Assembly (NCBI GenBank): GCA_005656395.1
Contig: SRSI01000069.1
Span: 62,001-126,000, forward strand
Source: Strongyloides papillosus
Lineage: Eukaryota; Nematoda; Chromadorea; Rhabditida; Strongyloididae
DNA: 64,000 bases
Reading direction: 5' to 3'
Position numbers and translations under genes: made by a program
Notes under the pieces: generated by a model
Seen by the model: the letters and a program-made list of their open reading frames with translations, nothing else
What the model was told of the DNA's origin: nothing
Database searches by the model: none
Shown: positions 5,276-47,930 of the stretch, in pieces
Layout: each line of letters opens with the position of its first letter
Position numbering within the stretch: the first letter of the stretch is position 1

Positions 5276-6210
5276 TTTGTTATTTTCAATATGATATTCA
5301 ATACTAAAAAGACCTTTTATATACAATTTGTTTTACATTATGCATGATAATTTATCACAAAAATAATCTTAAGAAATAATATTATTTAAATGAAGCAAAT
5401 TCATTAATGTATAATATATAACAAAAAAGTTTATTATAAAGTCTGTTTAATGTTCTCGTTATGTGATAATAAAATATTTCCATTTTTTTTAAAATTATCA
5501 TTTTTATTTAGTCTATCACTAAAAAGTTTTTAAGATATACTTCTGATTCAACTTAAACAATTTTATATATTTCATAAAATTTTCTGTTATTTATTAAAAA
5601 TAATAATTTAAATTAGAATTTCAAAGTAGTTTCTAAAAATATTTTGTAACTATTAAAAAATGCAAAGTTTTATTTTTAAAATATTCAATAGTTGAATTTC
5701 ATTATTTTAAATTTTTATTCTTAGATTGATCATATATTGTTTACGAGCTACTAATGTTTAGACTTTAAAAATATTGTCAGTGGAGAGAGGAATATACTAT
5801 ATGAAAAATTTACAATTAAAAATGTTATAACACCTTTGACGTAACTTAACTTTCTTTAGTTTAGAACCACTAAATTTTTTTCCATTATTTTGTTTGAGAA
5901 ACTACAATTTTAAAACTTTTATTTATTAATTATAAAGTGAATTATGTTAAAGGTAAATACATTTTATCATTAATTTCTAAAAAACGATGCCCAACGAAGG
6001 TTTAAATTATAAATAAATGTTTTTTAAGTAAATAAATAAATATAAGATTTTGTCTTATTATTGAATCCATCACAGGATACTCCGTAATTCTTTCTTTTAC
6101 AAGTCTTCTATATACTTATAGAAGATAATATGATTTATTCTGTATTTTTTGACTTTATTAGTTCTTCGTTTCTAAGGTTAAATTGATGTTATTTGACTTT
6201 TTTCAATACG
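5276..6210. other. AT-rich intergenic stretch
   Basis: Upstream of the minus-strand secreted-protein gene; it should hold its promoter, but no specific motif stands out. No coding potential or repeat structure was seen. Confidence 0.4.
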
Positions 6211-6632
6211 CTAAATATTTCTAAAGGATTTTATAGGATCCTCCTTCTTTACAGTATTGTTTTCTGTATCGTTATTTGTAAATGCTTTTCTCATTATATT
6301 TAAAAATTCATCTATTCGCATATTATCTTCGTCACATTCTGGTTCTTTATCTTTATAACACTCTAGTTCTTTATCTTCATTCCCTTCGTTTTCACTATCA
6401 TCGTCCAATTCTTGTTCTTCATCCCGTTTTTTTCATTATTTTCATTAAATTCTTGTTCTTCATCCCATTGTCTTTCATTGTCTTCATCCGATCCTAGTCC
6501 TCCATCTTTATTAAATTCTTGTCTCTCATCTTCATCCAATTTTAGTTTTATATACGAGTCTCTATTCTTCTTTTTTAAACCACTAAAATTTTCGAATGGT
6601 CTCGCCACGGAAAAAAAAAAGCAAAATAGCAT
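6211..6632 (-). pseudogene. Acidic Glu/Asp/Asn-rich protein with one frameshift
   Basis: Two overlapping minus-strand frames make one acidic low-complexity protein. The upstream frame (from ATG complementary to 6630-6632) runs through DEDERQEFNKDG and DEEQEFNENNEK, and the downstream frame continues with RDEEQELDDDSENEG to a stop at 6211. They join if one base is added to the 7-T run at 6427-6433. Repeated DEEQE[FL] blocks suggest internal repeats. The extreme N-terminus is Phe-rich because it reads through a poly-A tract, so the real start may be a downstream exon. The single homopolymer break could be an assembly error or real decay. It is divergent from the coiled-coil gene starting at 6690. 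Function unknown; acidic low-complexity sequence alone is weak evidence of a gene. Confidence 0.4.
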
Positions 6633-6689
6633 TTATACGTTCATCTAAATTTCTATACTAATTTTTGGTGAAGTAGCGTGTCGCCTATC

Positions 6690-7920
6690 ATGTTTAGCCC
6701 TGGCGTCTTGAAGAAAGAGGATTTTGCTGAAATGATTCATAACAAAGATCGGAAAATCAAACAAAACGACATCGTAAGTTCATAAGTAGTCGAAAATTAC
6801 TTTTACTTTAAGCATATACAATATTTAGAAGCAACAATAAAAGCTCAAAATGCTGAAATTGATAGTTATAGGAATTCTTTAGCTTCATTAACGGATAAGA
6901 ATATTACATTAGAAGAAAAAAATTGTGCTCTTGAAAAATCAAATCAATTCAAACATTCACTTTTGAATGAACTTGAAGATAAGATTAAAGAGTGTACAAA
7001 AAAGGAAAACAAAATAGAAGAACTGACAACTCAAAATATAAATCTGAGGTCCTGGATCGATATTATTTTGAAAGAGTTACAAGATTGTAGATCTTCAGAT
7101 GAGTCCAAAGCATCTTTCAATGAGACTCTAATTGATATTCTCCATTCTTCCATCTGCTCAGAAAGCAATGTGTCAGCATATTATAGTCCTACAGAATATG
7201 ACGATTTGGTAGAACGTTTAGCAAAGAAGGATATTGAGATAAAAGAGTTAACGGGTGAGGTGGAATGCTTAAGATATGAAAAAACTACAATGTCTTCTGA
7301 ATTGAATATGTTAAAGGATAAACTTGAAGAAATTGACAATAACTTTAACTATAATCTACTCCTACGACCATCTCTTGAAAGAATTAACTTAACGAATATA
7401 ATGAATCTTAATGAAGAACATTTTAAAGTTCCACAAAGGGACATAAGTATAGCAACAGAAATGTCTGGAAATATTCAATTTATGGATCCAACCATTCGGG
7501 TTGAGGAGGAACATTTTAAAAAAAAAAATTAAAGAACTTGAAATGCGACTATTTGAATGTAACCAAAAATTACACGAAACTATCGCGACCATGAAATCTC
7601 ATCAATGCCAAATTAGTTATAAAGATGGAATTGAAGAGGATAATACACAATCTTCAATAGAAGAAGGTGTAAATGAGGAATGTTTTATTGACTTGGAGAA
7701 AACTAAGAAGGCACGTGTAGAAAAAATTAAAAGTTTGAAGGATGCTAATGAATACCTTAAAGCTGAACTTCTGCCGTCGACCAAACAGAAAAATGATAAA
7801 ATGGGAGACAGAAAAAGTTCATTCCATTCAAAAAACGCTTTAATCACAATAGTTGACTTCATAGTTGTAGCACTCAAACCTTTTTTTTTAATTCAATTAT
7901 CAGGGAATTACAATACTTGA
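6690..7920 (+). CDS. Coiled-coil protein, two exons, frameshifted in a poly-A run
   Basis: Exon 1 is 6690-6773 (28 codons from ATG). A 39-bp intron (6774-6812, gtaagt...tttaag) joins in phase 0 to exon 2 at 6813, whose frame then reads HIQYLEATIKAQNAEID and stays open to TAA at 7530-7532. Deleting one base of the 11-A run near 7518-7528 would let it continue as KELEMRLFECNQK... in the frame that ends at 7920. The whole is Lys/Glu/Leu-rich with heptad-like leucines, so long coiled coils are expected. The last 40 or so codons (from about 7800) look unlike the rest and may cover an intron ending near 7901 (attatcag). I do not recognise a family. The single homopolymer shift may be a sequencing or assembly fault, so I keep it as a gene. 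Confidence 0.55.
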
Positions 7921-8426
7921 AGAAAAATTTATGTACCTTTCTGAAATTAAACCGGTAATTTATTTTAACATATAGCTATTACACAAAACATAAACATTTA
8001 TTTGAATAAAATTTTACCACTTGTTTACTCTGTATTTTATCATACTAAAAATGTGAATATAAAGAATTAATTAATTAATCACTATTTCATCCTTTAAATA
8101 GACGTTAAATTAAGAGGAATTTCTAGAAGTGTAATCATTACTACAATATTTTCATTGAGAACTCTTGAATTACCAAAAAAAAATCCAATCACTTTGTTAT
8201 CGTGATAAAACATTAAGAGGGACATGTAATACCATTATTTGTCTACGCGTGGATTAACTATGTCATTTGCAACAAATAGTTGTTTTTTTCCCCTGAATCT
8301 CTGCTGTACGTAGCGTGGCAAGATAAGAATGTCGAATCTCTAGCCACTTAATGATGATGAACTTTTTGTTGAAGTTGTCAAAAAGTAAGTTTATTTATTA
8401 CCAATAACAAACAATTATTTAAGAGC
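7921..8426. other. Intergenic, with a possible decayed leader exon
   Basis: Mostly AT-rich. Near 8325-8423 there is an exon-like segment ending at a gtaagt-type donor and an acceptor-like tatttaag just before 8424, but the frame upstream of it contains a stop, so it adds no usable coding sequence to the pseudogene that follows. Confidence 0.35.
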
Positions 8427-9771
8427 ATGGAAAAACATGAGTACTATTGTTGGGAAATTAAAGAAGATTTCTCGAAGCTTCAACGTAAGAAAGTACCGTA
8501 CTCCGAGTTGGAGACAAATTTTAGCGTTGATCTAACTGGTGTGGATCACTTATATGATTTATCAAGAGATGAAATATGTCAATTATATCAACAAGAAAAA
8601 ATATCTAATGATAACAAGACTAGAACTAATGAAATGTTGATACGAAGAAAAAATGAACTTGAAGATAGGTTAGCTGTTGCTGAGACTATTTGTAATGTAC
8701 AGAAGAGTTTGATAAATAGATTAAATGATACTTTGGGTGAAATGTTTAAATCATTATCTGAGCATGAAGCTTCACGAATACAAAAAGCAAGAGAGTGGAA
8801 GAATAAAGTTGTTTCCTTGGAAGGGACTGTCACATTTTTTACCAATGAAAATAATGAGTTAAGAGGTAAAGTCAAAGATCTAATGGATTCACAATGGAAG
8901 AAGGACAAAGAGTTGCTTGATTATAGCAATAAATTACTTAATGAGGAGGGTGAAAAAAGCAATATTCCTGGAGAGTTAAATCTATTGAAAGTTAACCATG
9001 AAGGTAATTTTTAATTAGTCATATATTTTAATAAACATTTTTAGTACTAAAAAAAGAACATGAAAATTTGCAAATTTAGTGTAATGAATCAATGCAAAAG
9101 ATTGTAGATGTAATCAAGCATCTTCTAGAATACATGAGGAACTTGAAGAGATGTCAGAGGAGTTACAAATAGCTCAAGAAAAGATTGATCTTGAGAAACA
9201 AACATGTATTCACATTATTAAAGCAAAAGAACTTGAGTTTGATAAACGACTTTAAAACAGAAAAGGAGAATATTGAGAAAGAGGCAAATAAGCAAATGTC
9301 ACTACTTTAATGGAAGCATGCTGAGGAGATGTCCAAATTTAGGAATGATACTAATCAGGTATTAAGTGAAGCAGCTTTGACAGAAAGATCTGTTGTGAAG
9401 GAAAGGAATATGCTTTCTAGAAGATTATCTGAATGTGAAAGTATCCTTGAAAATCATGAGAAGGTATTTTGTCAGAAGTTTCGGAGGCAGTTGGCAAATA
9501 AGTGCTGTGAAATTGTGACAGACCTTCAGCAGGGTAATGTTAAGCCGCCAAGAATGGAAACAGGAAGATCAAAGGTTCTATCTAGATACGCTGAGACATG
9601 TCTCGGAGAGTTGTGTGGTGAACCCCTCTCTAGAGTAGGTATGTCATCATCAAAAGGAAATGAAGGAGAGAAAAGTTACGTGAGATATTTAATCAAGTGA
9701 TTGAACCTAAACTTCTTCCAAATGGTGGTCGTAAACGTAATTTATCCGCTACCTCAAATATGCGAAGATAA
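8427..9771 (+). pseudogene. Decayed coiled-coil protein gene
   Basis: The frame 8427-9003 reads a Lys/Glu/Asn-rich coiled-coil protein of about 190 residues; a 41-bp intron (9004-9044, gtaatt...ttttag) then continues the frame as LKKEHENLQ before a TAG. Further coiled-coil pieces follow in shifting frames: EEMSEELQIAQEKIDLEKQ near 9147-9203, KTEKENIEKEANKQMSLL then TAA near 9307-9309, WKHAEEMSKFRNDTNQ and on to about 9660, and REKLREIFNQVIEPKL to a TAA near 9771. At least two in-frame stops and two frame changes show loss of function. The general character (coiled coil, similar length) resembles the gene just upstream, but I see no clear residue-level homology between them. Confidence 0.6.
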
Positions 9772-10160
9772 TTTTTGTATTTATATTTGATAATTAACTT
9801 TTTTTTTACTGATATATTGCTGTATAAAATGTATGCTATTTTTTAATATTTAACTAAGAAGTATGTGGTATGGATAATTTTTTTTATTAATATTATAACT
9901 ATTTTGTAGATATTCTTTTTAACGTTGTATATCATTACGATTCTTATCATATTTTCAATTTCTTTTTCTGTACTATATTTTTAAAAAAATTTTGAAAGTT
10001 AATAAATATTATTTCGAAAATAATGTTATTGGATAGCACATTATTTAACAAATTAAATCTCATATTTATTTATAGATATTTTATTTTTCTTGAAGAAGAA
10101 AAGTTTTTAATATGAATGTTTTGTAATAATGCAAGGATCATTTATATATTTTATTTATCA
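9772..10160. other. AT-rich flank of the LTR element
   Basis: No coding sequence or repeat visible. Confidence 0.35.
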
Positions 10161-10164
10161 ATAG

Positions 10165-10312
10165 AGTAAAAATGCAAATTTAGTATAAATTTTATACTAT
10201 ATTAAATTATAAATTTCACATTTTTATCATTATTATATCTTTGTCTTTTGATATTTATTATATTCATTTATTTTAATTATAGATATTAAGAGACAAATAA
10301 ATTAAATTTACT
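10165..10312 (+). repeat. Left (5') LTR
   Basis: 148 bp, identical by eye to the right LTR at 14629-14776, bounded by AGTAAA and TTTACT. It is unusually short for a gypsy LTR and very AT-rich; the sequence directly after it starts CTTACTG, with no TGG. Confidence 0.9.
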
Positions 10313-10425
10313 CTTACTGTTGCCGTTAAGGATTTGATAAAATTCGTTTTACTTGGGAACGAAGAAGTCAAATTCATCATCGATACTGCCGATAAGGTGC
10401 ATCTGGAACAAACCTGGAATCGATA

Positions 10426-13400
10426 GTGGAAGATATCATTTCTAGGATAAATCGTGATTCTGACGTAGAGGAGGTTCCACCTGGGTTAAACTTAGATACT
10501 GACAAAGAAGGGTATCTGTCTGAAGAGGAAGTAAACACTGTTATAGAGAAGGATATCTCTGGGTTAAGTGTTAATACTTTTGTGGAGGAAATTTCATCAA
10601 GTGTTGTAGTGGTAAAGAAGACTGCAAAGATGAATGCATGGTTATGTCATCCTCTGTATGAAGATACCAAAGATGTCGGTGAATGGTTAGATGGTCTGAA
10701 GATGTCATCAATGATCGATGACGTGGAAGAGAGGAAATGTACCTATTTAGCTCATCTACGTGGCAATGATACAATTAAGAAAATTATCAGTTCTTATTGC
10801 AGTGATGTAACTAATTGGAGTGATCTTAAAACTATTCTTGTTAAGCGATGTGGTAAAGGTATCAGTAAAGAGTTGTCAATGATGAAGTTGAAGACCTTTG
10901 AGTTTAAAGTTAATGAAGGTATTAAAGATCAAGTAATTGAGTTCGGAAAGCTAATTGATGTTATTTTACCTGATGAGTTGTCAAGTGATCTTGGTATGGA
11001 TATTAAGAAATTGATGCTTCAAACTTATTTGAGAGATCATAATGTTTTATGGAATCGTTGTAATGATGGGAAACATGATAATATGTATGAACTTGCTGGT
11101 GATTTGGAAATGACATGGGCTAGAAAGAAAAGTTCAAGTGGTAATAATTTTCATGGTAGAAAGAAGTTCATAGATAAGAAGGATAATGTTAAGACTGAGA
11201 TTAAAGGTAGTAATGGTAAATGTTTTGGATGTGGTGAGGCTGGCCACTATAAAAATAATTGTCTAAAGTCTGGTGATAAGGTTAAGAAGATTAACGGTCC
11301 TGTTGAAAATGCTAAAAGAGTTGAACAACTAGAAAATATGATTGAGAAGTTGTTAGAAAAAGAACATTTTGGTGAATTTGTTAGGAGAACGAATGATTTA
11401 AAGAATGGTACTCTTGTTGATGGTTCGAAACTAACGTCTCGTAGGGCAGATTGTAAAGCTGAATTTTATCTGCCAATTGGTATTTCTTATGGTAGTGAAG
11501 ATGTTAAGTTTAAGCCTGTGGTAGGTTTGGTAGATACTGGAAGCACTAAATGCATAATTTCACGTTCAACTGCGAATTTGATTGGTATTTCTTGTAGTTT
11601 CTTACGTCCGAAAACGTATAGTTTAGCCAACAATTCTAGTTGGAAAGTGTTAGGTGAAGTTGAAGTTCAAATTAAAGTTGGTAAAAATGTTGTAGATGTA
11701 CAAGTAGCTGTTGTCCCTGATTCTGAAGTTTCACAGTCTCATAATAAGTTTCAAATGTTATTGGGAAGTGATTTGCTTAAAGCCTGTGGAATTGTTATTG
11801 ACTTTAAGAACATGAAGATGTACATGGATGAGAAACAGTTAGTGTCATTTAATGAAATTAAAGCTAATTTTGTACGGTTGGTTAGAAATGTACGTCGAAT
11901 TAACATAGATATGACTCAGTCCATTGTGAAGAAGTTTCCAGAAGTAATGTCGAGAGAGAAAACTGATATTGGAGAATGTACAATTTCAGCAAGACCTATC
12001 TTGTTTGTAGAAGGGGCGAAATTTCCTAAGATAACAAGATTCAATCATAATTATGAGAAACAGAAGATAATTGCTGCTCAGATTAAGGAGTGGAAAGATA
12101 TGGGTGTCTTAGAAGAAGCTGATGCTCAAATAATTCTCAATGTTACTGTTGTTCGAAAGAAAGAAGCAATTCTTGAAGAAGAGATTGATGGAAATGTCAT
12201 GCAATCACGTGCTGTTAGTGGATGGAGAACTTGTATTGATGGTCGTCCTGCTAATAAGATTCTTCAGTATGTTTCTTATGGTACTAAAGTTTTATCTCAA
12301 CGTTTATCTCAATTGCAAGGTGCTACTAAGTTTAGTAATTTTGATTTAAGACAGTTTTATTTGCAAGTAAAAATGGCAGATGTTAATCTTAATCAATTTG
12401 GTGTTCAATGTCCTATCAGTAACAAGGTTTTTGCATTAAGAAGAATTCCGTTTGGTCTGTCTGTTAGTAGTAGTTTATGTCAAGAAGTATTAGATAAGGT
12501 TTTAATGATGGCAGAGATTGAAATATGCAAGACATTGATGTTAGATGGTGAGATGGAGAAAATTGCTCCGGAAAGGAAATTTGGTTTGTTTTCATATCAA
12601 GATGATATTGTGTTCTTTACAAAGAAAGAGTTGGAGTCTTCACATTTTAAAATGGTCGAGATAATTTTTCAAACGTTTAAACAGATGAATTTGAAAATTA
12701 ATGTAGCGAAGATGTCATTAAACGTGGATGAAATTCAATTTTTGAACTTTATGGTAAGTGCTAAAGGTTTAGCTCCGTGTTTAGAATATGTCAAAGCTAT
12801 TCAAGAAGTCCAAGCTCCAGTAGGAAAGAAGTCGTTGCAAAGATTCATTGGTATGATACAATATTATCGTATTTTTATAGAGAATATTACAAAGAAACAA
12901 TTGCCACTGCTTAAGTTATTGGAAAAGAATTCTATCTGGAAATGGGGAAAGGAGGAACAAAATAGTTTTGAGATGTTAAAGATGGATTTGATTAATGCTG
13001 CACAAATTAAATTACCTGATGTTATGAAAAGATTTTATTTATTCACTGATTGTTCTAAAGATTGTGAGGCAGGAGTTCTTGCTCAAGAAGATGAAGAATT
13101 TGGTAATGCCTTAAGACCATGTGCCTTTTATTCAAAACGTTTACATTGTTCTGGTTATACTCCAAGTGTGTTATTAGAATTACGTGCTCTATGTAACAGT
13201 TTATTGTATTTCAAGAAGTTAGTTGGAAATGCTCAAGTAATTGCTAAGAGTGATCATAAACCCTTGATAAGTATGTTGACTAATGGTAAAGAAAGTAGTT
13301 CTAAGTTTATGAAATATATCAATCTTATAAATGAGTTTGGAAATGTTGAAGTAATGTTTATAGAAGGAAAGAAAAATATACCTGCTGATTTTTTATCTCG

Positions 13401-14547
13401 TGCATTTGTTAGGAAAGTAATGGTTAATGATTCTGTTAAAGATAGCCCTCCAGATCCAAATAAAATGAAAGAAATTTTTCATCAATATCATGATTGTTTA
13501 GGTCACGCTAGTTTAGCAAGATGTACACCTATTGTTTTATTACGTCATAATTGGATTGGTATTAAACGTGATCTAGCTAACTATATTGACCAGTGTTCTA
13601 CATGTAAAGTTGCCGTTGCTAAGTATAAAGAAAGGATGAAAGTAAATGTTATTGTACCTTCTAGACCACTTCAGATGTTGGCTATGGATGTTTCTGGGCC
13701 TCATAAAATAAGTTTGTCTGGTCATAAATATGTTCTAGGAGTTGTAGATGTTTTTTCTAAATATTTATGGTTATTTCCTTTACGTGATATCAAGACAAGT
13801 ACAATAAGTAAAGAGTTAGAAACAAGAATTTTTATCCCATTCTCGTCTCCAATTTACATGCGTAGTGATTGTGCTTCAACTATGTTAGGAGGAGAGGTAA
13901 AGACATTGATGGAAAAGTATAATGTTATTGTTGATCCAGGAATTGTTGGATATAAACAGTCAAATTGTATGATTGAAAGGTGTTTCAGATCTTTAAATAT
14001 TACAATGAGGAAAAGTCTTGATAATTTTGATTTATGGAATGAAGTTGTATGGTCAACAATGTATTCATATAATAGACTAGTTCATGGTACCACTCTGCAC
14101 ACACCGTATGAAATTATGTTTGGTCAAAAGCCAATTCTCAAATCAGATGACAGAGAGGAGGTTGAAAAAATTGCTGATTTTAAAGATAATGAAATAATTA
14201 GAAGTCAAACATACCTTTTAGTTGAACAGTTAATAGAAGCTGTTAGAGGAAAACGTTATGATGAAGATAATTATGAAGTAACACGCTGTGGTAATGATGA
14301 TAAATTAAATGTAACCGACAAACCACTGGGTGATCTTGAAAAGAAAAGTCCTTTGAAAAAACTTAAGGTTGGTGATCGCGTTATCATTCGTGATCATACT
14401 AGTGGTAAATGGGATGTGATCTATTCTGGAGGTAATGATAATGCATATATTGTCAAATCACTTTTAAAGAATGCTGCTTATGTAGTCAAGGAAAAGGAAA
14501 GAGGTCGTCCTAAGAAAGTTCATTTACAAGATATTAAACTTATTTAA
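10426..14547 (+). CDS. Gag-Pol polyprotein of the gypsy-type element
   Basis: Single frame, open from 10396 to TAA at 14545-14547; there is no ATG before 10630, so the start is unclear (GTG at 10426, ATG at 10630, or a spliced leader). Numbered from 10426: zinc knuckle CFGCGEAGHYKNNC (CX2CX4HX4C) at about 266-279; aspartic protease VDTGS near 369; reverse transcriptase with FDLRQFYLQV and catalytic YQDD at 724-727; RNase H with FTDCSKD; integrase HHCC zinc finger from about 1019, and the catalytic triad D1088, D1148, E1184, the last two exactly 35 residues apart. A basic tail (GRPKK) closes the protein. All key catalytic residues are present. Gag and Pol are fused in one frame, with no frameshift or stop between them. 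Second position of the RT box is Gln (YQDD), where Val, Ile or Leu is commoner. Confidence 0.9.
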   Translation: MEDIISRINRDSDVEEVPPGLNLDTDKEGYLSEEEVNTVIEKDISGLSVNTFVEEISSSVVVVKKTAKMNAWLCHPLYEDTKDVGEWLDGLKMSSMIDDVEERKCTYLAHLRGNDTIKKIISSYCSDVTNWSDLKTILVKRCGKGISKELSMMKLKTFEFKVNEGIKDQVIEFGKLIDVILPDELSSDLGMDIKKLMLQTYLRDHNVLWNRCNDGKHDNMYELAGDLEMTWARKKSSSGNNFHGRKKFIDKKDNVKTEIKGSNGKCFGCGEAGHYKNNCLKSGDKVKKINGPVENAKRVEQLENMIEKLLEKEHFGEFVRRTNDLKNGTLVDGSKLTSRRADCKAEFYLPIGISYGSEDVKFKPVVGLVDTGSTKCIISRSTANLIGISCSFLRPKTYSLANNSSWKVLGEVEVQIKVGKNVVDVQVAVVPDSEVSQSHNKFQMLLGSDLLKACGIVIDFKNMKMYMDEKQLVSFNEIKANFVRLVRNVRRINIDMTQSIVKKFPEVMSREKTDIGECTISARPILFVEGAKFPKITRFNHNYEKQKIIAAQIKEWKDMGVLEEADAQIILNVTVVRKKEAILEEEIDGNVMQSRAVSGWRTCIDGRPANKILQYVSYGTKVLSQRLSQLQGATKFSNFDLRQFYLQVKMADVNLNQFGVQCPISNKVFALRRIPFGLSVSSSLCQEVLDKVLMMAEIEICKTLMLDGEMEKIAPERKFGLFSYQDDIVFFTKKELESSHFKMVEIIFQTFKQMNLKINVAKMSLNVDEIQFLNFMVSAKGLAPCLEYVKAIQEVQAPVGKKSLQRFIGMIQYYRIFIENITKKQLPLLKLLEKNSIWKWGKEEQNSFEMLKMDLINAAQIKLPDVMKRFYLFTDCSKDCEAGVLAQEDEEFGNALRPCAFYSKRLHCSGYTPSVLLELRALCNSLLYFKKLVGNAQVIAKSDHKPLISMLTNGKESSSKFMKYINLINEFGNVEVMFIEGKKNIPADFLSRAFVRKVMVNDSVKDSPPDPNKMKEIFHQYHDCLGHASLARCTPIVLLRHNWIGIKRDLANYIDQCSTCKVAVAKYKERMKVNVIVPSRPLQMLAMDVSGPHKISLSGHKYVLGVVDVFSKYLWLFPLRDIKTSTISKELETRIFIPFSSPIYMRSDCASTMLGGEVKTLMEKYNVIVDPGIVGYKQSNCMIERCFRSLNITMRKSLDNFDLWNEVVWSTMYSYNRLVHGTTLHTPYEIMFGQKPILKSDDREEVEKIADFKDNEIIRSQTYLLVEQLIEAVRGKRYDEDNYEVTRCGNDDKLNVTDKPLGDLEKKSPLKKLKVGDRVIIRDHTSGKWDVIYSGGNDNAYIVKSLLKNAAYVVKEKERGRPKKVHLQDIKLI

Positions 14548-14621
14548 TGCTATTTATGGTAATGGAAGTTTTAAGCAGGGAGATATTTGGAAAAAATGTT
14601 TAATTTGTATTTTAAATTTGT

Positions 14622-14628
14622 GGGGAGA
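14622..14628 (+). promoter_or_regulatory. Polypurine tract of the LTR element
   Basis: The run GGGGAGA sits directly against the right LTR, the position expected for the plus-strand primer of reverse transcription. Confidence 0.6.
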
Positions 14629-14776
14629 AGTAAAAATGCAAATTTAGTATAAATTTTATACTATATTAAATTATAAATTTCACATTTTTATCATTATTAT
14701 ATCTTTGTCTTTTGATATTTATTATATTCATTTATTTTAATTATAGATATTAAGAGACAAATAAATTAAATTTACT
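14629..14776 (+). repeat. Right (3') LTR
   Basis: Identical by eye to the left LTR over 148 bp; followed by ATAG, which also precedes the left LTR. Confidence 0.9.
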
Positions 14777-14780
14777 ATAG

Positions 14781-15764
14781 CAAAAATTATTTCTGTAGAA
14801 TGTTATGGGTTTAATTTTATGTTCGAATTATCATTGATTAAATAATTTTAGTAGGTTAATTTTATTTAACAATAAATTCTTAAACTATACTTTTTTTTAT
14901 ATATTTTATTTTCAAAAATAAATTTTTTTATAAGTTATAGTAAAGTATACTCATAAGTGACAAAAAATACTTACTAATGATATAATTTCTCAATAGTTAC
15001 AAAATATCATGATATCAATTAATTAGGATGTATAAATATATCTTGAATATTATCAAGTGTAAACTTTCTCAAGTAATATTTCCTGTTTATCATATTTATA
15101 ATATTAATGATTACCATTAAAATATTACATATGTTTTTGAATGTTAAAAATTTCTAAACATTTTGAAAAATTTTTTTATTATATAGTTTCATGATTCTAA
15201 GATCGTTTGACAATTCAATAATTTTTCGTAAATTTTTAGTATTGAAATAGAAAAAAAATGAATAGAATGCTTACGTTAAACTTCAAATTTGTAATAAAAT
15301 GCTGGGTTTAAGTTACTGATGATGACAGAAATTCAAATATCAATTTCAGATCATTCTTATGCTTATTTTGGCGTCTTGACGTGTTTACACAAAACTTTTC
15401 TACATCTTCCACGTATACTTTTCTCCAAAAAAACTTTCGCATATATTACAATATATGGTGGTAAAATACATCAAAGCACTCAGTGTTATCATTTTTAAAA
15501 GCAAGATGTTGCGCACTTTTATAATGCTCTGATGAGAGTTTTCTTGTTTTTTTTATGGTTGTGGGAATTTTTTTTCTTCCGTAACTTTTTAACATATTTT
15601 TTAACGTCATTTTCATCTTTTTGTTTCAGAAAAATAGTATTGTCAACCAGTAGGAGCTTCTCGTCCACTACAGATTTTTATTTTGAGGTAATCAAATATT
15701 TATGTACATTATGATTGAATATTTTTAGAAAAGTACTTAAATTATTGGAGAAGTTATGGAAGAA
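14781..15764. other. AT-rich stretch leading into the 1-kb array
   Basis: No complete gene. Near 15629-15690 and 15727-15785 there are exon-like segments with acceptor and donor signals (tttcag, gtaatc, tttttag, gtaagt) that resemble the paired short blocks found in each unit of the array downstream, so this is probably a diverged first unit or its leader. An ATG at 15756 opens a short frame to the donor at about 15788. Confidence 0.35.
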
Positions 15765-18700
15765 TTGGAAATGAAACCTGAAGGAATGTAAGTTTTAATT
15801 AAAACAATTAAAAGTATATTAAAATCCGTATATCACTCATTATTACACATTAGGTACCATTTTCCCACATTTTTTTTTGCATTCACACTCTCATACTATG
15901 GTTATTTTTATTTCAAATTAGTACTAGATTCTTTAATGACTTTGCATACGATTCGTGTGGATACACTTAGTTGAACATTTTTTTACATAGAATTTGACAC
16001 TTACAGAATATTTTTGTCCCTGGTATTTCTCTCGTTACATTTGATTAGACTGTTATTTATATTTATAGAGCCTGTGGGTTACATTAACTTCTGTAGTTTA
16101 CTTCATAAACTAGAAATATGTGCTACTAGAATCATCTACAACTTCTTTCTTTAGAATTATTTAGATATTGATGACGATAGTTTGGTTATGTATGTCTTTC
16201 TCAGGAATATCTTAACTACACTAATAAATTCCTTTATTAGTTATCATTCTTCTAGTCAAGATTAAAATCAATAAGCAAATTTATCATTGTTTACGTTCTT
16301 TTATTTCTTAAGTTGACATAAAGTAGAATGTTAGCTTCTTGTAGAATAATAACATTTATAGCTATGCAAAATTTTACTGTAATATAGTTGTTGATTTATT
16401 TTTTAACTTCCTAAACAGTAGATGAATTCTTGTGCTTTCCATTCTTAAGAACGTCAATTTCCATTGATCTACTACTTCAATATTATTATATACCGATGTC
16501 GTTCTAACTGTTCTTTATTCAAGTTTAAAGTAAACTAAGTGAGAGTACTACATTACCAATGAGGGTATTTTTTTTGTAACTTTTATACTTTTGACACATG
16601 GGAAAAAACATATAAATATTAGTAAGTTCCATATTGTACACCATTTCCAATTTAGGATGTTATTTTTTTGGCGCGCTTTATCATTGATTAAAAGTGTTAG
16701 TGTATTTGTCTTTTTAACATTTACTTTTTCTAGTATTTCAATAAACTTCTGAACTGGAGATGCTTCAAAACGGAGTGAATATTGTGATAGTAAAGTTAAT
16801 GTAGATTTTGTTTTGGCATTTCAATTGTACTAGTATTTTTCTGGATGTATTAAAGAAAGTGGAGCTGAAAGAATGTAAGTTTTGATTGAATATATATGTG
16901 AATCCGTATACCGCCCATGATTACATATTATATACATTTTTTCACATTTTTTACTAGGTTGTACATCTTTGTTGGATTAATACTGTGGTAACTTTTATTT
17001 CAATTAAATACTAGATTCTTTAATGACCAAACATACATTCATATAGACGCCCTTGCTTGAATCTTCTTTATACGTAGAATTTGACGTTTAGTGAATATCT
17101 CCATCCTATGTATCTGTTTGAGTCACGGTTGTAGACATATCATTATACATGATTATGTTGTTAATTATAGTTAGAGGGTCATGTAAGTTACACTAACTCC
17201 TATGAGCCATTTTTTATGATAGAATATGTCTTGCTAGGAGCGTCTGGACTTTCCTCTTTCAATTATCATTGATACCATTTTGATTCACTTCCTTCTATTT
17301 CTTAGAATATTGCTAAAATAAAAGGCTAGCTTCATGTAAAATAGCAGTTTTCTAACAACGGACGGTTGTACTTAGTAATGCAATCTTTGATTTATTTTTT
17401 AGTTTTATAAACAGTAGATGAGTTATTGCACACTACATTCTTAGGAACGTCGATTTTCATCAATATTATCACTTATATGCCAATATAGTCTTAACGATTA
17501 TTTTACTCATGTTTGTATTTAAGAAGTTACAGGTTGAGGGTACTACTTTAACCTCGAGGGAATTACTTTGTCAGTTCTTATTTTTGACATATGAAAAACA
17601 AACATATAAATATTAGTAGGTGCCTTTATTATTATCCACCATTTCCCATAGAAAGTGTACTTTTTTTGGCGCGTTTCCACATTGATTATCCTAGTTAATC
17701 ATTAAAGCAATAATGCGTTTCCTTATTCCTATATTTACTTTTTTTAAGTGCTGCTAAAAACTTCGGAGCTGGAGATGGTGCGAAATAGGAGAGAATGTTT
17801 CCAAAATCAAGTTAGCGTAGGTTTTGATATCTCAGTTGCACTAATCTTTTATTTCTAGGTGTTTCATTTTCTATGGACGCAGTTGAAAAGAATGGGGTCG
17901 AAGGGGAGAGTAAGTTTTGATTAAAATATATTTAAATCCGTATACCACCCACAATAACATATTAAGTACTATTTTCCCACGTTTTTTTTATTAGATACCC
18001 TTCCTTGAATTTTATTTATATATAGAAGTTTACATTTACTGAATATCTCCATCCCATGTATTTGTCTGAATCACGGTTATAAAAATATCATTAAACTTGA
18101 TTAGATTGTTATTTACATTTAGAGGGTCTGCAGTTATGCTAACTACCATAGACTGTTTCGTACAATAGAATATATATGTGTTATTCAAAAGCATCTACAA
18201 TTCTTCCTTTAAAATTATTTAGGTGTTGTTAACAACAATTTAATTCTGTAGGCCTTTTTTGGGGTATTTAAACTTGAAGTAGTAAATTTCTTTGGCTGTC
18301 ATTTTTCTGATCAACATTAAAAAGAAAGATCAAATTTATTATTGCTTCACGTCTTTTTATTTCTTATGTTGTTATAGGGTCAAATGTTACCCTCTTGTAA
18401 AATAATTACACTAGTATATGTAGTTCTTGATTTGTATTCTATTTTCATAAGCATTAGATGAGTTTTTTACATTCTTCATTCTTAAGAACGTTAATTTCTA
18501 TTTGATCTATTACCTCGGATATTATTATATGTCGTTATTCATGTTTAAACTAAGTTGTATATTGAGAGTACTACATTTACCCCTCGAGGGAATTACTTTG
18601 CAAGTTTTTACTTTTGACATGTGGGAAAAAACATTTAAATGTATTAGTAGATGCCATATTATACACCATTTCCCATATGAGGTTTTTTTTGGCGCCTTAC

Positions 18701-21700
18701 CTCATTGATTACCATAGTAAATCATGAAAGCATTAAATACATTTTTTTTATTATATCATTATTTACATTTTCTTTAGTGCTGTTAGAAGAAACTGCTGAA
18801 CTGGAGATGCTGCCAAATAGGGAATAATATTATGAGAATCAAGTTAACGTAGGTTTTGTTTTGATACTTCGGTTGTACTAATCTTTTATTTCTTTTTCTT
18901 AGTATTTGAATTTCTCAGGATGCAATTAAAATAATGGAACTAGAGGAATGTAAGTTTTAATAGAAAATATACTTGAATCCTTATACCACACACGAATACA
19001 TATTAGTTCCTGTTTTTTTTCACATTTTTTACCAGAATGTACGTCTTTGTTGTATTTACTACTACCTTTATACCTTGGTGATTTTTATTTTAAGTACATT
19101 AATAACTTTGCACATATTTATTTAGATCACCTTGCCTGAATTTTTTTATACATAAAAGTTTATGTTAACTGAATATCTCCATCTCGTGTATTCATTTGAA
19201 TCGCCGTTGTTGATGTCTCATTGTACGTGATTATACGATTACTTAGAATTTAAAGGATCTGTAGGTTACATTAACTCCTACGGTTTATTTTATATACTAG
19301 AATATGTGTTATCAGGAGCATCTACACTTTTTCCTTCAAAATTACTTAGGTATTGTTGACACCAATTTTGTTTTGCAGGTATTTTCTCAGGAATATCTCA
19401 ATTATACTAGTAAATTTCTATCAGTTATCATTTTCTAATTCAAAATTTGATGTAGTGTAAATTTCTTTTAAAAACTATATATTGCCTTACGTCATCGTTT
19501 TATTGCTTAGAATTGTTACAATAGTAGAATGTTGTCTTGACTTCTTTTTTAATTTTATAAACACCAGATGAATTCTTGTACTCTGCAATCTTTTAAGAAC
19601 GTCAATTTTCAATTATCTATTACCCCGATATTATTATATGCCGATATTATTTTGACTACTTTTTTATTCATGTTTAAACTAATTAAGGGTACTACTTTGT
19701 CCTCGAGAGCATTTTTTTTGTAACTTTTATACCCTTGACATGTGGAAAAAAAACATTATAAATATTACTAGTTGCCATATTATACGCTATTTCCCATAAG
19801 AAGTCTTTTTTTTGGCACGTCTTTCTCATTGATTATCGTGGTTAATCATAAAATTAATTTCCTTATTTTTATATTTCCTTTTTTTTTAGTGCTGGTGAAA
19901 GCTTCTGAGAGTTTGAGATGCTGCAAAATAGAAAACGATGTTATCAGAATCAAATTAGTGTAGGTTTTTCCTTGATATCTCCATTTTGGTAACCCTTTAT
20001 TTCTTAGTATTTGAATTTTCCTGAATGCAGTTGAAAGAATAGAGCTGAAGAAATGTAAGTTTTAATTAAAAAATATATTTCTGTCTTTATACCACCCACC
20101 GTTAGATATTAAATACTACTTTTCACATTTTTTATTAGATTATACATTTATATAAGTAGATACTCTCGCCTGAATCTTCTTTACATGTAGAGGTTGACGT
20201 TTTCTGAATATATATCTCTATCCCATATGTTCATCTTAATCGCGGTTGTGGACGTTTTGTTAATCATGATTATGGTATTATTTAGAACTTTATAGGGTCC
20301 GTAGGTTACGTTATATCTTCTATGGTCTATTTAAGCACTAGAATATGTATTACTGGAACCATCTACCCTTCTTTCTTTAAGATTACTTAGGTATTGTTGG
20401 CAATAGTTTCGTTTTGTAGGTCTTTCTCAGGAATATCATAATTGTACTAGTAAGTTTCTTTGGTTATCATTTTTTCTGATCAAGATTTGATGCTGTGTAA
20501 GTCTTTTTTAAAACTATATTGGTCCACGCTGTCGTTTTATTGTTTATATATTGTTACAAAAAGTGCTTTATCTTGACTTGTTATTTAATTTTATAAACAG
20601 TAGACGAATTCTTATATTCTCCATTCTTAAGAACGTCAATTTTCATTGATCTACTACTTCAATATCATTATATACTGATATTGTTTTTACTATTTTTTTT
20701 ATTCAAGCATAAACTAAGTAAGAGTACTATTTTACCCTTGAGGAAACTTTCTTTATAAGTTTTATACATTTGAAATGTAAGAAAAAACATTTAAATATTA
20801 GCAGGTGCCATATTATACACCATTTCCCATAGGAAGTATACTTTTTTTGGCGCGTTTTCTCATTGATTAAAATCATCCATGCATTCTTCTCTTCTAATAT
20901 TTAATTTTTTTTAATGTTGCAAAGAAACTTCTGTGCTGGAGATGCTGCAAATGGGAGACATTATTGTGAGAATCAGGTTAATGTAGGTTTTGTTTTGTGT
21001 TTCGGCTGTACTAATCTTTTATTTCTTAGTATTTATATTTCTCTGGATGCAGTCTGAAGAATGGAGATGAAAGAGAATGTATGTTTTAATTAAAAAGTAT
21101 ATTTATATCTGTGGTATACTACCCACAATCGCATATTAAGTACTGTTTTCCCATATTTTTTATTAGTTTCTACGTCTCCTTACATCCATACTTTCGTACT
21201 GTGGTGATTTTTATTTAGGTTAGTGTTAGATTCTTTAAAGACTTTGTATACTCCTCTTACTTGAATCTTATTTAGACATAAAAGTTGACGTTTGGTGAAT
21301 ATCTCTAATTATTGTTTGATTTATATTGTTATTAGATAGTAAGAAGGTCCTTGGGTTACATAATTAACTCTTATAGATTATTTTATACATTAAAATATCT
21401 GTTACTAGAATAATCTAAACTTCTTTCTTTGGAATTACTTTGGTATAATTTACACAAATTTGGTTTTATAGGTATTTGATAAAGTAGACCTTTTTAAAAC
21501 TACTAAGCAAATTTACTTTTGATTCACGTTCTTTTTTTCCTTAGATTATTGCTAAAATAAGAAACTAGCTTCATATAGAATAGCAATTTTTTTAACTATG
21601 CACAGTTATACTAGTAATGTGGTCTTTTACTTATTTTTTAGTTTCATAAACAGTAAATAAGTTTTTATACTTTGCATTCTTAAGAACATCAACTTCCATT

Positions 21701-24660
21701 GATCTTATTGCTTCATTATTATTATTTTTATGCTGATATTGATTAAAATACTTTTTATTGATGTATGTAATAAGTTACATGTTGAGAGTAGTACTTTTAC
21801 CCTTGGGAGAATTTGCTTTATATGTTCTATACCTCTGACATGTTGGGAAAAAAAAATTTAAATATGGTAGGTGCCATATTTTATACACTATTTCCCATAT
21901 AAGATGTAGTTTTTTTTGGCGCGTTCCCTCATTGATTATCGTGGTTAATCATTGAAGCATTGATAGATTTTTTTATTTTATATTTACTTTTTTTAGTGCT
22001 GCAAAGAAACTTCTGTGCTGGAGATGCTATAAATAGGAGAAAATATTGTGGAAATCAAATTGATGTAGGTTTTGTTTTGATATTTCGGTTGTACTCAGTT
22101 TTTCTAGGTCTTTCAATTTCTCTGGATGTAGTTGGAAGAATGGAGCTGAAGGAGAATGTAAGTTTTAGTTAAAAAAATATATTTGCATGCATATACCACT
22201 CATGACTATATATTGGATACTATTTCCCCACATTTTTTTTGCTAGGTTATACATTTTTGTTGCATTCCATATTTGATACTAGATTCTTTAGTGATTTTCC
22301 ATACATTCATGTGAATATACACTTATTTGGAACTTTTTATATACAATAATTGACGTTCACTGAGTATCTTCATCTTGATTTATTCGTCTGAATCGCGTAT
22401 GTGGAAATCTTATTATATATGATTGAGATCTGTAGTTACATTAATTCTTACGGGTTATTTTTCACGCAAGATTGAATCTGTATTACCTGAAACATCCACA
22501 CTTCGGTTCTGTATGTCGTTCACAGAAATATATTTTAACTTAAAGTAGTAGATTCCTTTAGTTACCACTTTTCTTATCAAGATTAAAAATAAAAATCAAA
22601 TTTATTATTGCTCACGTCATTTTATCCCTTAAGTTGTTATAAGGTAGAATTTTACCGTCTTGTAGAATAGTAACTTTTTTTAACTACTCAAAATTAAACT
22701 AGTATATATGGAATTCTTGGTTTGTTTTTTAATTTTATGAGCAGTAGATAAGGTTTTAAACTTATGCATTCTTAAGAACGTCAATTTTCATTGATCTTGT
22801 TGCCTCATTATTATTATTTTTATGCCGAGATTGATTTAAATATTTTTTATTCGTCTTTGCAATAAGTTACATGTAGACGGTACTACTTTACCCTTGAGGA
22901 AATTACTCGGTCAGTTTTTACTTTTGACGTGTGGGAAAAAACATTTAAATACTAGTACTTTCCGTATTATACATCATTTCCCATATGAGGTGTAGTTTTT
23001 TTTTGGCGCGTTTCCTCATTGATTATCGTGGTCAATCATAAAAGTATTACTAGATATTTCATCTTATGTTTACTTTTATAGTGCTGCTAAAAGCTTCTGA
23101 GTTGGAGATGCTGCAAATGGGAGACATTATTGTGAGAAGCAGGCTGTAATGTAGGTTTTGTTTTGATGCTTCGGTTGTACTGATATTTTATTTCTTAGTA
23201 TTTATATTTCTCTGGATGCAGTCTGAAGAATGGAGCTGAAGGGGAATGTAAGTTTTAATTAAAAAGTATATTTATATCTGTGGTATACTACCTACAATCG
23301 CATATTAAGTATTGTTTTCCCATATTTTTTATTAGTTTCTACGTCTCCTTACATCCATACTTTCGTACTTTGGTGATTTTTATTTAGGTTAGTGTTAGAT
23401 TCTTTAAAGACTTTGTATACTCCTTTTACTTGAATCTTATTTGAACATAGAAGTTAACGTTTACTGGATATCTAATTATGCTTGATTATATTGTTATTTA
23501 AATAGTTATAAGGTTCTTAGGTTATATTAACTCCTATAAGTTATTTTATACACTAGAATATCTGTTATCAGGAACACCCCTACTTTTTTTATTTAAAATT
23601 ACTTAGGTATTGTTAAACCCATTTTGGTTTTGTACGTATTTGATGCAATGAATCTTTTTAAAACGATTTAAAAAATCTATTTTTAATTCACATCCTTTTA
23701 TTTCTTAACTTATTAAAAAAGTAGAATGTTAGCTTCATATAAAATGATAATATTTTTAACTGTGCATATTCATACTAATGTATGCTATTCTTGATTTACT
23801 CTTTAATTTCATAAATGGTATATAGGTTCTTATAGTCTCTATTCTTAAAAATGCCAATTTTAAATGGTCCATTGCCTCAATATTACTTATCATATACCGA
23901 TATATTGTCTTAACGATTATTTTATTAATGTTTATACTTAGTTACATGTTGACAGTACTATTTTACCCTTGGGGGAATTTTCTCTATAAGTTTTACACCT
24001 TTGACATGTGGGAAAAAACATTTAAATATTAATAGGTGCTATATTATGCATCATTTCCCATATGATATGTAGTTTTTTTTGGCGCGTTTCCTCATTGATT
24101 ATCCTAGTTTTAATCTTGAAAGCATAATACATTTTATTTTTTTTATCATATTTACTTTTCTAGTGCTGTTAGCAGAAACTGCTGAGCCGGAGATGTTGCA
24201 GAATAGGAAAGAATATTGTGAGAATCAAATTTATGTAGGTTTTGTTTCGATATCTCGGTTGTATTAATCTTTTATTTCTAGATGTTTCAATTTCTCTTGA
24301 TGCAGTTGAAAGAATGGAGCTGAAGGAATGTAAGTTTTAGTTAGAGAATATATTTAAATCCGTATATGCCGCCGATGGTCATATGTTAGTTTAGCCATTT
24401 TAACTAGTTTGACATTTGTATGTAGATCCCTTTGCTTGAATCTTCATTATTATATAGAAAGTGAGATCTACTGAATATCTCCATCTCGTATATTTATCTG
24501 AATCACGGTTGTGGACATCTCTTATTACAGTTAATAAGATTGTTATTTTGTAGTTAAGAGGGGATCTTTAGGTTACATTAACCCCCATTTGTTATTTCAT
24601 ATGGTAGAATGAAGATGTGTTATTAGAGGTATCTACACTTATATTTTATCTTACAATTGT
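15765..24660 (+). repeat. Tandem array of about 8.5 diverged ~1.05-kb units
   Basis: The same order of landmarks recurs eight times: gtaagtttt donor, a long spacer, TTCTTAAGAACGTCAAT, GTGGGAAAAAACAT, ATTTCCCAT, TTTTTGGCGCG, ATTGATTA, then acceptor ttttag|TGCTG and donor |gtaggttttg, then an acceptor-like end and a short block ending GAAT|gtaag. The GGCGCG-type box is at 16670, 17668, 18691, 19814 (GGCACG), 20849, 21918, 23005 and 24081, so units are 998 to 1123 bp. Units are diverged by many substitutions and small indels, so the array is old. The two splice-bounded blocks (about 67-71 and about 20-25 nt) vary in length and carry stops in several units, which argues against a long multi-exon protein. 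It may be a noncoding RNA gene family, a satellite, or relics of an amplified gene. Confidence 0.8.
16600..24110 (+). promoter_or_regulatory. Promoter-like block with E2F-type box in the array units
   Basis: Each unit has a block of about 110 bp: GTGGGAAAA, an AT box (ATTTAAATATT or ATATAAATATT), CCATATTATACACC, TTTCCCAT (inverse of the GGGAAA word), then a T-run and GGCGCG. TTTGGCGC fits the E2F consensus TTTSSCGC in seven of eight units (the unit at 19814 has GGCACG). It lies about 80-100 bp before the TGCTG block. The most conserved part of the unit is therefore upstream of the exon-like block, as expected if every unit had its own promoter. This is motif reading only; no binding is shown. 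Confidence 0.4.
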
Positions 24661-24800
24661 ATTAATATAAAATTTATTTCATGGTTCTTCCCATGGAGCA
24701 TTTAACTAGTTTGAGGTACTTAATATCACTTTATTATATTAACTATTAATAAAAAAAACATTACAATAAGTTTTAATATTGTTTATTTATTTCATTTTAG

Positions 24801-25056
24801 TGTATTTCCACGGATCAGACTTTAAATTAATCGGATGCTGAAGGTCGGTGTGTATATCTACATCATGGAGACTGAAACCGCTAAGATGGAGTTTCCTTGT
24901 GCAATGACAACTAATTTATTATTATTATTTTGTTTCGTTTATTTATATTTGGTGTTTTTAATGTCTTCCCTCTTCATTGTATGTATTTCCGTTGTCCGTG
25001 TTCTTGTATTTATAGTATCTTCATTTATATTTGTACTCAGATACAAATGGGTTTAG
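24801..25056 (+). other. Possible terminal exon after the array
   Basis: After an acceptor-like ttcattttag (ending 24800) comes TGTATTTCC..., placed like the TGCTG block of the units. An ATG at 24835 opens 73 codons to TAG at 25054-25056: about 20 mixed residues (METETAKMEFPC is part of it), then an almost wholly hydrophobic stretch. It could be the last exon of a gene that begins in the array or an unrelated short frame in AT-rich DNA. Confidence 0.25.
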
Positions 25057-46457: not shown

Positions 46458-47930
46458 ATGACAACGAATATGATTATAAATTTTCTGTTGTTTCTCTTTT
46501 TTACTATTGCTTTATCAGTATGTTAACGTTTAAAAATTTTATTTACATAGTTTTAGTTACTCACTCAAGAGAATAATGTTCCAAAAGAAGATAAAGAAAA
46601 CTATGAAATGACAAAACTTGCTATGAATGTTGTTGAAGAATTGATAGAAGAAAGAAATGGTAATTATAGTATAGAAAAACATGCCGAAGGAACACAAAAA
46701 AATGTGTTTTATTCCAATAACGAAAATCCAAGTGTCAAAGCGATGGAGGAATCTGGTTTGTTCCAAGGAGATGAGATGCTTACTAAAGAACAAGCAGAAG
46801 ATGTTATAGAAGACGCTGTTAAAGAAGCAAGAGAATATGGACTCGATTTATCAAATTTATTTAGTGATAGTGATATTATCAGAAAAAAGCGTAAAATAGA
46901 AGTAAAAGAAAATGCAAAATGGGAATTTCCTATCAAATACTATGTTAAAGATGTAAACGAGACCTTAGTAGATATGTCACTAAAATTAATAGAAAATGAA
47001 ACATGTATCAGATTTCAGAAACTATACTTTCCTTCTTTTGGAGTACCAGGGTTAAAATACTTTAAAGGAAATGGATGCTGGAGTTATGTCGGCAGAAAAT
47101 CACCTAATCAGTTTCAAGATGTTAGCATTGGATTTGGATGCACCACAATTGGAACCGTTCAACATGAAACTATGCACGCTTTAGGATCAGTTCATGAACA
47201 ATGTAGAGCTGATAGGAATCGATACTTAAAAATTATCCAAGAAAATATAAGATATGGTTCAGAGAGAAATTTTAGGGAACTTAATATCTCAAATGCTATT
47301 ACTTTTAATATAAAATATGACTATGGTTCAGATATGCACTATGCTGTTGACTCTTTTACCAAAAATGGTAAACCTACTATGATACCTAAGGATCTACTTT
47401 TTGCTAAAACTGTTGGAGTTAATAGTGGTCTTACCTTTCTTGATGTTAAGTTGTTAAATTTATATTATTGTTCACAGAACTTTACAAAAATCCGATGCTA
47501 TAACGGTGGGTACCCAGATCCTAACAACAAAACCAAATGCAAGTGTGTCGAAGGATATGCTGGAGACAAATGCATTCAACTACCAGAACCAAATAATGAA
47601 TGTGATGCAACATTATATCATGTAGAAGAAAATGCAAAAAATATAAGTATTGATGGGGAAAAAAATTGTCTTTATCATTTAAAAGCTCCACATGGAAAGA
47701 AAATTAATATAACTGTTATATATACAAAGTTAGAGTATTCGTATGAACATACTTGCAAAAAAGAAAATAGTCTTGAAATAAAATTTATTTCAGACAAAAC
47801 TCCAACTGGAGCTCTTTTCTGCTCAGAAAATAGAAATATCTCAATTATTACTGAAAATGATCATGCAATTGTTTACTATAGAAGTACATTTTCGTGGAAT
47901 AAAATGAACATGACCTTCCATGCAATTTAA
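46458..47930 (+). CDS. Astacin-family zinc metalloprotease 2
   Basis: Two exons, 46458-46517 and 46557-47930, with a 39-bp intron in the same place and phase as its paralogue; 477 residues. Same order: signal peptide (1-20), prodomain with a KKRK-type basic motif, catalytic domain with HETMHALGSVHE and Met-turn SDMHY, EGF module (CYNGGY...CKCVEGYAGDKC), CUB. It is about two-thirds identical to the 42.9-kb protein by eye, with the most divergence in the prodomain and CUB and near-identity around the zinc site. Both copies keep every catalytic residue, so both are probably active proteases, duplicated in tandem. AATAAA at 47979-47984. Confidence 0.93.

What the first reader, a model, noticed from the sequence alone, without database searches (positions are those of the whole stretch)
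15765..24660. Tandem ~1.05-kb array with splice-bounded mini-blocks and an E2F-type box per unit
Eight diverged units repeat the same order: promoter-like block, GGCGCG box, acceptor ttttag|TGCTG, a 67-71-nt block, donor |gtaggttttg, a second short block ending GAAT|gtaag. Seven of eight units match TTTSSCGC. The block lengths (67, 68, 71, 71, 70, 68...) are not kept modulo three, and several have stops, so a long repeated protein is unlikely. What stays constant is the order and the splice-site frame. This would suit a family of short spliced noncoding RNAs, each with its own cell-cycle-type promoter, or relics of a gene amplified by unequal crossover.
Basis: partly seen in the sequence, partly recalled or inferred. 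Interest (0 to 1): 0.85.

Follow-up and report, generated by a model that had tools for sequence, protein, structure and literature searches.

The report
Amplified noncoding gene array in threadworm
In the livestock threadworm Strongyloides papillosus, a small spliced locus has been copied about eight times in a row and keeps its splicing signals but not a readable protein, so it is most likely an amplified gene relic or a source of noncoding RNA.

Summary
Eight diverged units (998-1123 bp, mostly 70-75% identical) repeat promoter-like block, GGCGCG box, T-rich acceptor, 67-71-nt block, 33-54-nt intron, 41-51-nt block, GTAAG donor. I add a partial ninth unit (15336-16664), a third conserved acceptor, and array copies in the Strongyloides papillosus genome on C26 (twice), C3 and C1. 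One C26 copy is palindromic; the other appears to run into C1 as a palindrome. The window copy and the copy at the C26 end lie beside a duplicated segment with astacin genes. Between units, box and splice sites differ less than spacers. Reading frames drift, no codon periodicity appears at the mini-exons, and between recent copies promoters change as fast as spacers. A database gene model, A0A0N5C7P2, uses these mini-exons across two units; that does not show expression. Units share gene-conversion tracts. Six of nine lack AATAAA; one lies just after the array. Best reading: a spliced gene fragment amplified by unequal exchange, now noncoding, possibly still transcribed as one repeated-exon RNA. 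The E2F label is weak. No RNA data could be examined.

The parts
15336..16664 (+). Partial terminal unit U0 (GGCGTC box variant, two exon-like blocks; the third acceptor is missing in this copy)
   Evidence: Alignable with C3 and C26 copies from about 15336 on, 75-77% identical
16590..16664 (+). Promoter-like block before the box of unit 1 (TTTGACACATGGGAAAAAACATATAAATA...); a like block precedes every box
   Evidence: Ungapped identity between units 0.81; sequence
16665..17662 (+). Unit 1, box to box
16734..16800 (+). Exon-like block A, unit 1 (67 nt)
16834..16874 (+). Exon-like block B, unit 1 (41 nt), donor GTAAG at 16875
17663..18685 (+). Unit 2
17749..17816 (+). Block A, unit 2 (68 nt)
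17859..17909 (+). Block B, unit 2 (51 nt)
18686..19808 (+). Unit 3
18778..18848 (+). Block A, unit 3 (71 nt)
18903..18949 (+). Block B, unit 3 (47 nt)
19809..20843 (+). Unit 4 (box GGCACG)
19890..19959 (+). Block A, unit 4 (70 nt)
20008..20054 (+). Block B, unit 4 (47 nt)
20844..21912 (+). Unit 5 (acceptor A lost; shares a conversion tract with unit 7)
20915..20982 (+). Block A, unit 5 (68 nt)
   Evidence: like the first exon of gene model P0069
21030..21078 (+). Block B, unit 5 (49 nt), donor GTATG
   Evidence: like the second exon of P0069
21913..22999 (+). Unit 6
21997..22064 (+). Block A, unit 6 (68 nt)
   Evidence: like the third exon of P0069
22108..22157 (+). Block B, unit 6 (50 nt)
   Evidence: like the last exon of P0069
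23000..24075 (+). Unit 7
23082..23150 (+). Block A, unit 7 (69 nt)
23199..23247 (+). Block B, unit 7 (49 nt)
24076..24662 (+). Unit 8 (truncated)
24164..24234 (+). Block A, unit 8 (71 nt)
24282..24329 (+). Block B, unit 8 (48 nt), donor GTAAG at 24330
24748..24753 (+). AATAAA after the array, candidate shared 3' end (inferred)

Best explanation
A small spliced locus (promoter-like block, T-rich leader, two mini-exons around a short intron, further intron) was amplified in tandem by unequal exchange. Its units diverged to mostly 70-75% identity, with gene conversion between them. The whole segment was then copied to other places of the Strongyloides papillosus genome, partly as palindromes and in part beside astacin genes. 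The mini-exons no longer hold a conserved protein. What is left is a relic gene array that may still yield one long, repeated-exon noncoding RNA read on the + strand and ending after unit 8. Shown: unit order, copies, a converted tract, lost frames, retained splice signals. Inferred: unequal exchange, past function, direction and present transcription.
For: Same order in eight units and in array copies on C26 (two places), C3 (short) and C1 (start of the array only). Ungapped identity between units 1-7: box 0.90, donor B 0.87, promoter 0.81, intron A 0.79, against 0.63-0.75 in spacers. Consensus GT/AG dinucleotides are retained in 0.64 of cases on average over 110 sites, but acceptor A 7/8, donor A 8/8, donor B 8/8 and the third acceptor 6/6. 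In 33 unit copies above 200 bits, donor A, acceptor B and donor B have their GT or AG in 33 of 33; acceptor A is AG in 28 and AA in 5, the 5 being copies of unit 5. No codon periodicity at either mini-exon; A+B not kept modulo 3; stops in most frames. Tract shared by units 5 and 7: 0.98 identical over 100 columns where the C36 and C26 copies of unit 5 are 0.87. T-over-A skew in all nine units, -0.15 to -0.20, against a mean of -0.01 in 53 other 1-kb stretches. Database gene model A0A0N5C7P2 is made of A-B-A-B of units like 5 and 6 at the same junctions.
Against: The mini-exons (0.745 and 0.752) are no more alike than several spacers. Splice sites stand out less against their neighbours: dinucleotide retention is 0.72-0.83 in the blocks, intron A and donor B region; and 11 of the 110 GT/AG sites are fully retained, several with no splice role. 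Acceptor B is in register in only 4 of 7. Many of the 33 copies are near-identical, so 33 of 33 is not 33 independent tests, and one weaker copy left out (192 bits, at the end of C26) reads GGTAG at donor B. Between recent copies promoters change as fast as spacers, 13 of 656 against 83 of 4540, p 0.76; the A-intron-B block is only slightly slower, 18 of 1311, p 0.33. No transcript evidence could be examined.
Confidence: 0.6

Rival explanations
1. An active family of short spliced noncoding RNAs, one promoter per unit, or alternative promoters feeding a shared 3' end after unit 8.
For: Box and promoter-like block are among the best kept parts (0.90 and 0.81); splice sites kept in nearly all of 33 copies; a TATA-like word with RTGGGAA-type sites around it (RTGGGAA 27 in the window against 10.3 expected, 16 of them in 15336-24662); uniform strand skew.
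Against: No AATAAA in six of nine units; promoter not slower than spacers between recent copies; box altered in units 3 and 4 of some copies; no clear conserved RNA fold, best z -2.4; no Rfam family at gathering score.
Confidence: 0.22
2. A plain complex satellite or tandem repeat with accidental gene-like words.
For: Tandem order, gene conversion, few loci, no transcript shown; promoters not slower than spacers between recent copies.
Against: Splice sites and box more conserved than spacers between units; GTAAGTTT on one strand only; a database gene model uses the same junctions.
Confidence: 0.12
3. A repeat protein gene: two exons per unit (68+49 = 117 nt, 39 codons in unit 5) spliced through the array.
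For: Unit 5 A+B is 117 nt and open in one frame in the window copy, and the gene model P0069 continues in frame into a unit like unit 6.
Against: A+B modulo 3 is 0, 2, 1, 0, 0, 1, 1, 2 in units 1-8 and stops appear in most frames; the first half of block A is read in different frames in different units; no Pfam match for P0069; one database relative, from the same species, among 780 candidates.
Confidence: 0.06

Closest known systems
Repeated-exon noncoding RNA loci (Firre, SNORD115/116 host genes; recalled, not tested here)
   Same: Tandem units, each with short noncoding exons and kept splice sites
   Different: No conserved small RNA or clear fold was found in the units, and no transcript is known to me
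Ampliconic tandem gene arrays and palindromes, such as Stellate/Suppressor of Stellate or mammalian ampliconic genes (recalled)
   Same: About 1-kb units in tandem, copied between places, inverted arms, gene conversion
   Different: No intact protein, and no sequence like the unit was found outside the arrays by the search made
Strongyloides papillosus predicted gene A0A0N5C7P2
   Same: Its 69 residues are blocks A and B of two neighbouring units like units 5 and 6
   Different: Covers only two units, matches no held copy exactly along its whole length, and is a prediction without known function

Membership tests
E2F-regulated promoters | TTTSSCGC at a promoter | tested here: inconclusive
   The word is at 7 of 8 promoter-like blocks, 1.24 expected in the whole window, but that these blocks are promoters is not shown
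E2F-regulated promoters | The same site marks replication genes in this genome | tested here: inconclusive
   Strict site on the upstream side of 1 of 7 MCM loci (L039). Minus-strand loci appear not to be turned by the tool, so I assigned sides by hand; the script's own upstream count did not turn them and is not used
Spliced noncoding RNA gene family | Splice sites kept while frames drift | tested here: met
   closely related copies, so not independent
Spliced noncoding RNA gene family | Spliced transcripts exist | not testable with these tools
   no reads available
Spliced noncoding RNA gene family | Own 3' end per unit | tested here: inconclusive
   AATAAA absent from 6 of 9 units, but A[AT]TAAA is in excess, 22 against 15.5
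snRNA or spliced-leader type genes | Promoter element shared with U1 and U2 genes of this genome | tested here: not met
   TAACCCAACT lies upstream of U1 and of one U2 gene; 3 matches with one mismatch in the window, 3.94 expected, one inside the array on the other strand. Spliced-leader genes themselves were not looked for
snoRNA host array | Conserved small RNA in the introns | tested here: inconclusive
   No Rfam match at gathering score; three weak ones at E 1.1-1.4, one of them outside the array; no clear fold signal. An undescribed small RNA would be missed
Repeat protein gene | Frame kept from unit to unit | tested here: not met
Plain satellite | Signals change as fast as spacers | tested here: inconclusive
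   Slower between old units, promoters not slower between recent copies

The most novel reading that the evidence does not exclude
The array is a promoter-per-unit noncoding locus in which inverted copies face each other (one palindrome within C26, and probably one across the C26 end and C1 start), so that convergent transcription yields double-stranded RNA and small RNAs, possibly acting on the amplified astacin-bearing region beside it.
Probability: 0.08. Interest if true: 0.75.

Novelty: new member of a known kind. Interest (0 to 1): 0.36.

Why it matters
If transcribed, it would be a case of a locus whose splicing skeleton outlives its reading frame in many tandem copies. Two of its copies lie beside a duplicated segment with astacin genes, a family expanded in Strongyloides (recalled), so it can serve as a marker for how that region was duplicated and inverted. 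If silent, it is an instructive relic: exchange between units keeps gene-like order without a gene.

Tried and rejected
Dispersed transposon: the unit search hit only C26, C36, C3 and C1 (that tool scores the best candidates only); the LTR element 10165-14776 is an insertion absent from the C26 copies. snRNA-type promoter. snoRNA host or structured RNA. Protein repeat. Parent locus elsewhere: the only exact TTTTTTGGCGCG outside the arrays (1 of 24) lies on C35, and 301 bases around it showed no further likeness by eye. Male chromatin diminution of S. papillosus was considered; nothing here tests it. A first count of recent changes mixed in the converted unit 5 and was replaced.

Literature: nine searches gave no listing that names this array. 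Only listings and starts of abstracts were seen, and some lists were cut (15 of 16, 10 of 11, 12 of 46,266, 8 of 22 and 12 of 19 papers shown). Of PMC10676810 I saw part 1 of 6 and passages; of PMC10676819 passages. Only openly licensed PMC papers are held.
Full report
Source. An astacin encoded at 46608-47930 is 100% identical to Strongyloides papillosus A0A0N5BKJ7. The window is C36:62001-126000 of a 58.2-Mb assembly in 79 contigs. S. papillosus is a livestock parasite (passage of PMC10676819).

Observation. TTTSSCGC occurs 7 times in 64 kb, all at these boxes. GTAAGTTT is found 8 times on the + strand of 16665-24662 (7 at donor B; 0.53 expected, none of 200 shuffles reach 8) and not on the - strand. 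These counts are not independent, because the units are copies. Unit lengths are 998-1123 bp; pairwise identity in gapless columns is 0.68-0.82 among units 1-8 and 0.63-0.69 for the partial unit 0.

Copies. A unit query found 47 matching pieces, a lower bound: on C36, at two places of C26, a short copy on C3 and a small piece at the start of C1. The exact 12-mer TTTTTTGGCGCG occurs 24 times in the genome, 23 in these arrays; about what composition alone would give elsewhere, by my own estimate. The copied segment is window about 5705-24902 (from about 6001 in the copy at the C26 end), without the LTR element at 10165-14776, whose two 148-bp ends are identical and whose empty site is present on C26. 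At C26:437049-447794 the array is palindromic, arms 93.6-96.9% identical; the right arm leads into sequence like that of C3. At the end of C26 a second palindrome begins (5.0-kb arms 99.88% identical), and the start of C1 matches C26:735480-753947 inverted at 99.7%. I infer that C26 and C1 join there; an assembly duplication is the alternative. C26:713179-740840 matches window 61544-32838 inverted, in pieces, at 94-99%, the piece with the two astacin genes at 99.3%. No such segment was looked for around the other C26 copy beyond the 50 kb fetched, nor around C3 beyond 20 kb.

Constraint, old. Between units 1-7, ungapped identity is 0.90 in the box, 0.87 at donor B, 0.81 in the promoter-like block, 0.79 in intron A, 0.745 and 0.752 in the two exon-like blocks, 0.63-0.75 in spacers. 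Of 110 consensus GT or AG sites the mean retention is 0.64; donor A and donor B are 8 of 8, acceptor A 7 of 8, the third acceptor 6 of 6; acceptor B is 4 of 7 in register. Against this, 11 of the 110 sites are fully retained, several without a splice role, and dinucleotide retention around the splice sites is itself 0.72-0.83. In 33 unit copies above 200 bits the GT or AG of donor A, acceptor B and donor B is present in 33 of 33 and acceptor A in 28 of 33. Weaker pieces were left out; one of them, at the contig end of C26, reads GGTAG at donor B. Many copies are near-identical to each other.

Constraint, recent. Between C36 and the left-arm copies of the two C26 arrays, leaving out unit 0 and the converted unit 5, promoters differ at 13 of 656 sites, spacers at 83 of 4540, the A-intron-B block at 18 of 1311; neither contrast is significant (p 0.76 and 0.33). 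With all units the numbers are 17 of 840, 127 of 5330 and 25 of 1500, p 0.62 and 0.11. So there is no evidence of present selection on the promoter, with modest power.

Coding. No 60-column window at the exon-like blocks shows codon periodicity; among 37 overlapping windows the smallest p values lie elsewhere (0.0005 at columns 1020-1080, 0.007 at 450-510, 0.009 at 1050-1110). A+B is 0, 2, 1, 0, 0, 1, 1, 2 modulo 3 in units 1-8. A database search with five reading-frame pieces (units 3, 4, 5, 6 and 8) found one protein among 780 candidates, A0A0N5C7P2 of the same species. The published S. papillosus annotation used AUGUSTUS and MAKER with manual models, RNA-seq data and genes of close relatives (passage of PMC10676819). 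That this model stems from it is my inference; whether reads support it is unknown.

How it stays in order. Units 5 and 7 of C36 are 0.95-0.98 identical over about 200 columns, whereas C36 and C26 copies of unit 5 are 0.87-0.91 there. I infer a conversion since C36 and C26 parted. Likeness between units is therefore not selection alone; the box lies outside that tract (0.69 in the first 100 columns).

Transcription. All nine units are T-rich on the + strand, skew -0.15 to -0.20, against a mean of -0.01 in 53 other 1-kb stretches, 4 of which are below -0.14. AATAAA is absent from six of nine units; in units 1-8 there are 3 against 5.99 expected, and 26 of 200 shuffles have as few. The looser A[AT]TAAA is in excess, 22 against 15.5. 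One AATAAA follows at 24748. I read this as weak support for one long + strand transcript.

E2F. A strict site is on the upstream side of 1 of 7 MCM loci, so the word is not shown to mark cell-cycle genes in this genome.

Verdict. A real, ordered, gene-like tandem array, noncoding now, most likely an amplified gene relic that may still be transcribed; whether it is an active RNA family is open.

Noticed in passing
10165-14776: Probably young LTR retrotransposon with protease, reverse transcriptase, RNase H and integrase domains; identical 148-bp ends; absent from the C26 copies of the segment.
   Followed up: partly
15058-15337: A 280-bp dispersed repeat: 24 further pieces at 76-81% identity listed, a lower bound; its right edge coincides with the left edge of the array.
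   Followed up: partly
6690-9750: Coiled-coil gene copied with the array on C26 (twice) and C1, each with a stop in its second part, and also on C12 at 90% without the array; database models P0067 and P0068 cover parts, and the search made found them in S. papillosus only.
   Followed up: partly
32838-61544: Astacin-bearing segment found inverted on C26 in pieces at 94-99%; C1 matches part of that C26 stretch at 98.6% or more.
   Followed up: partly
L030 and L033, upstream of a U2 and the U1 gene: Shared element TAACCCAACT beginning 58-59 bases upstream, a likely snRNA promoter element of this genome.
   Followed up: no
16598-24061: RTGGGAA-type sites in opposite directions flank a TATA-like word in several promoter blocks; such words resemble CSL (LAG-1) sites (recalled).
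   Followed up: no
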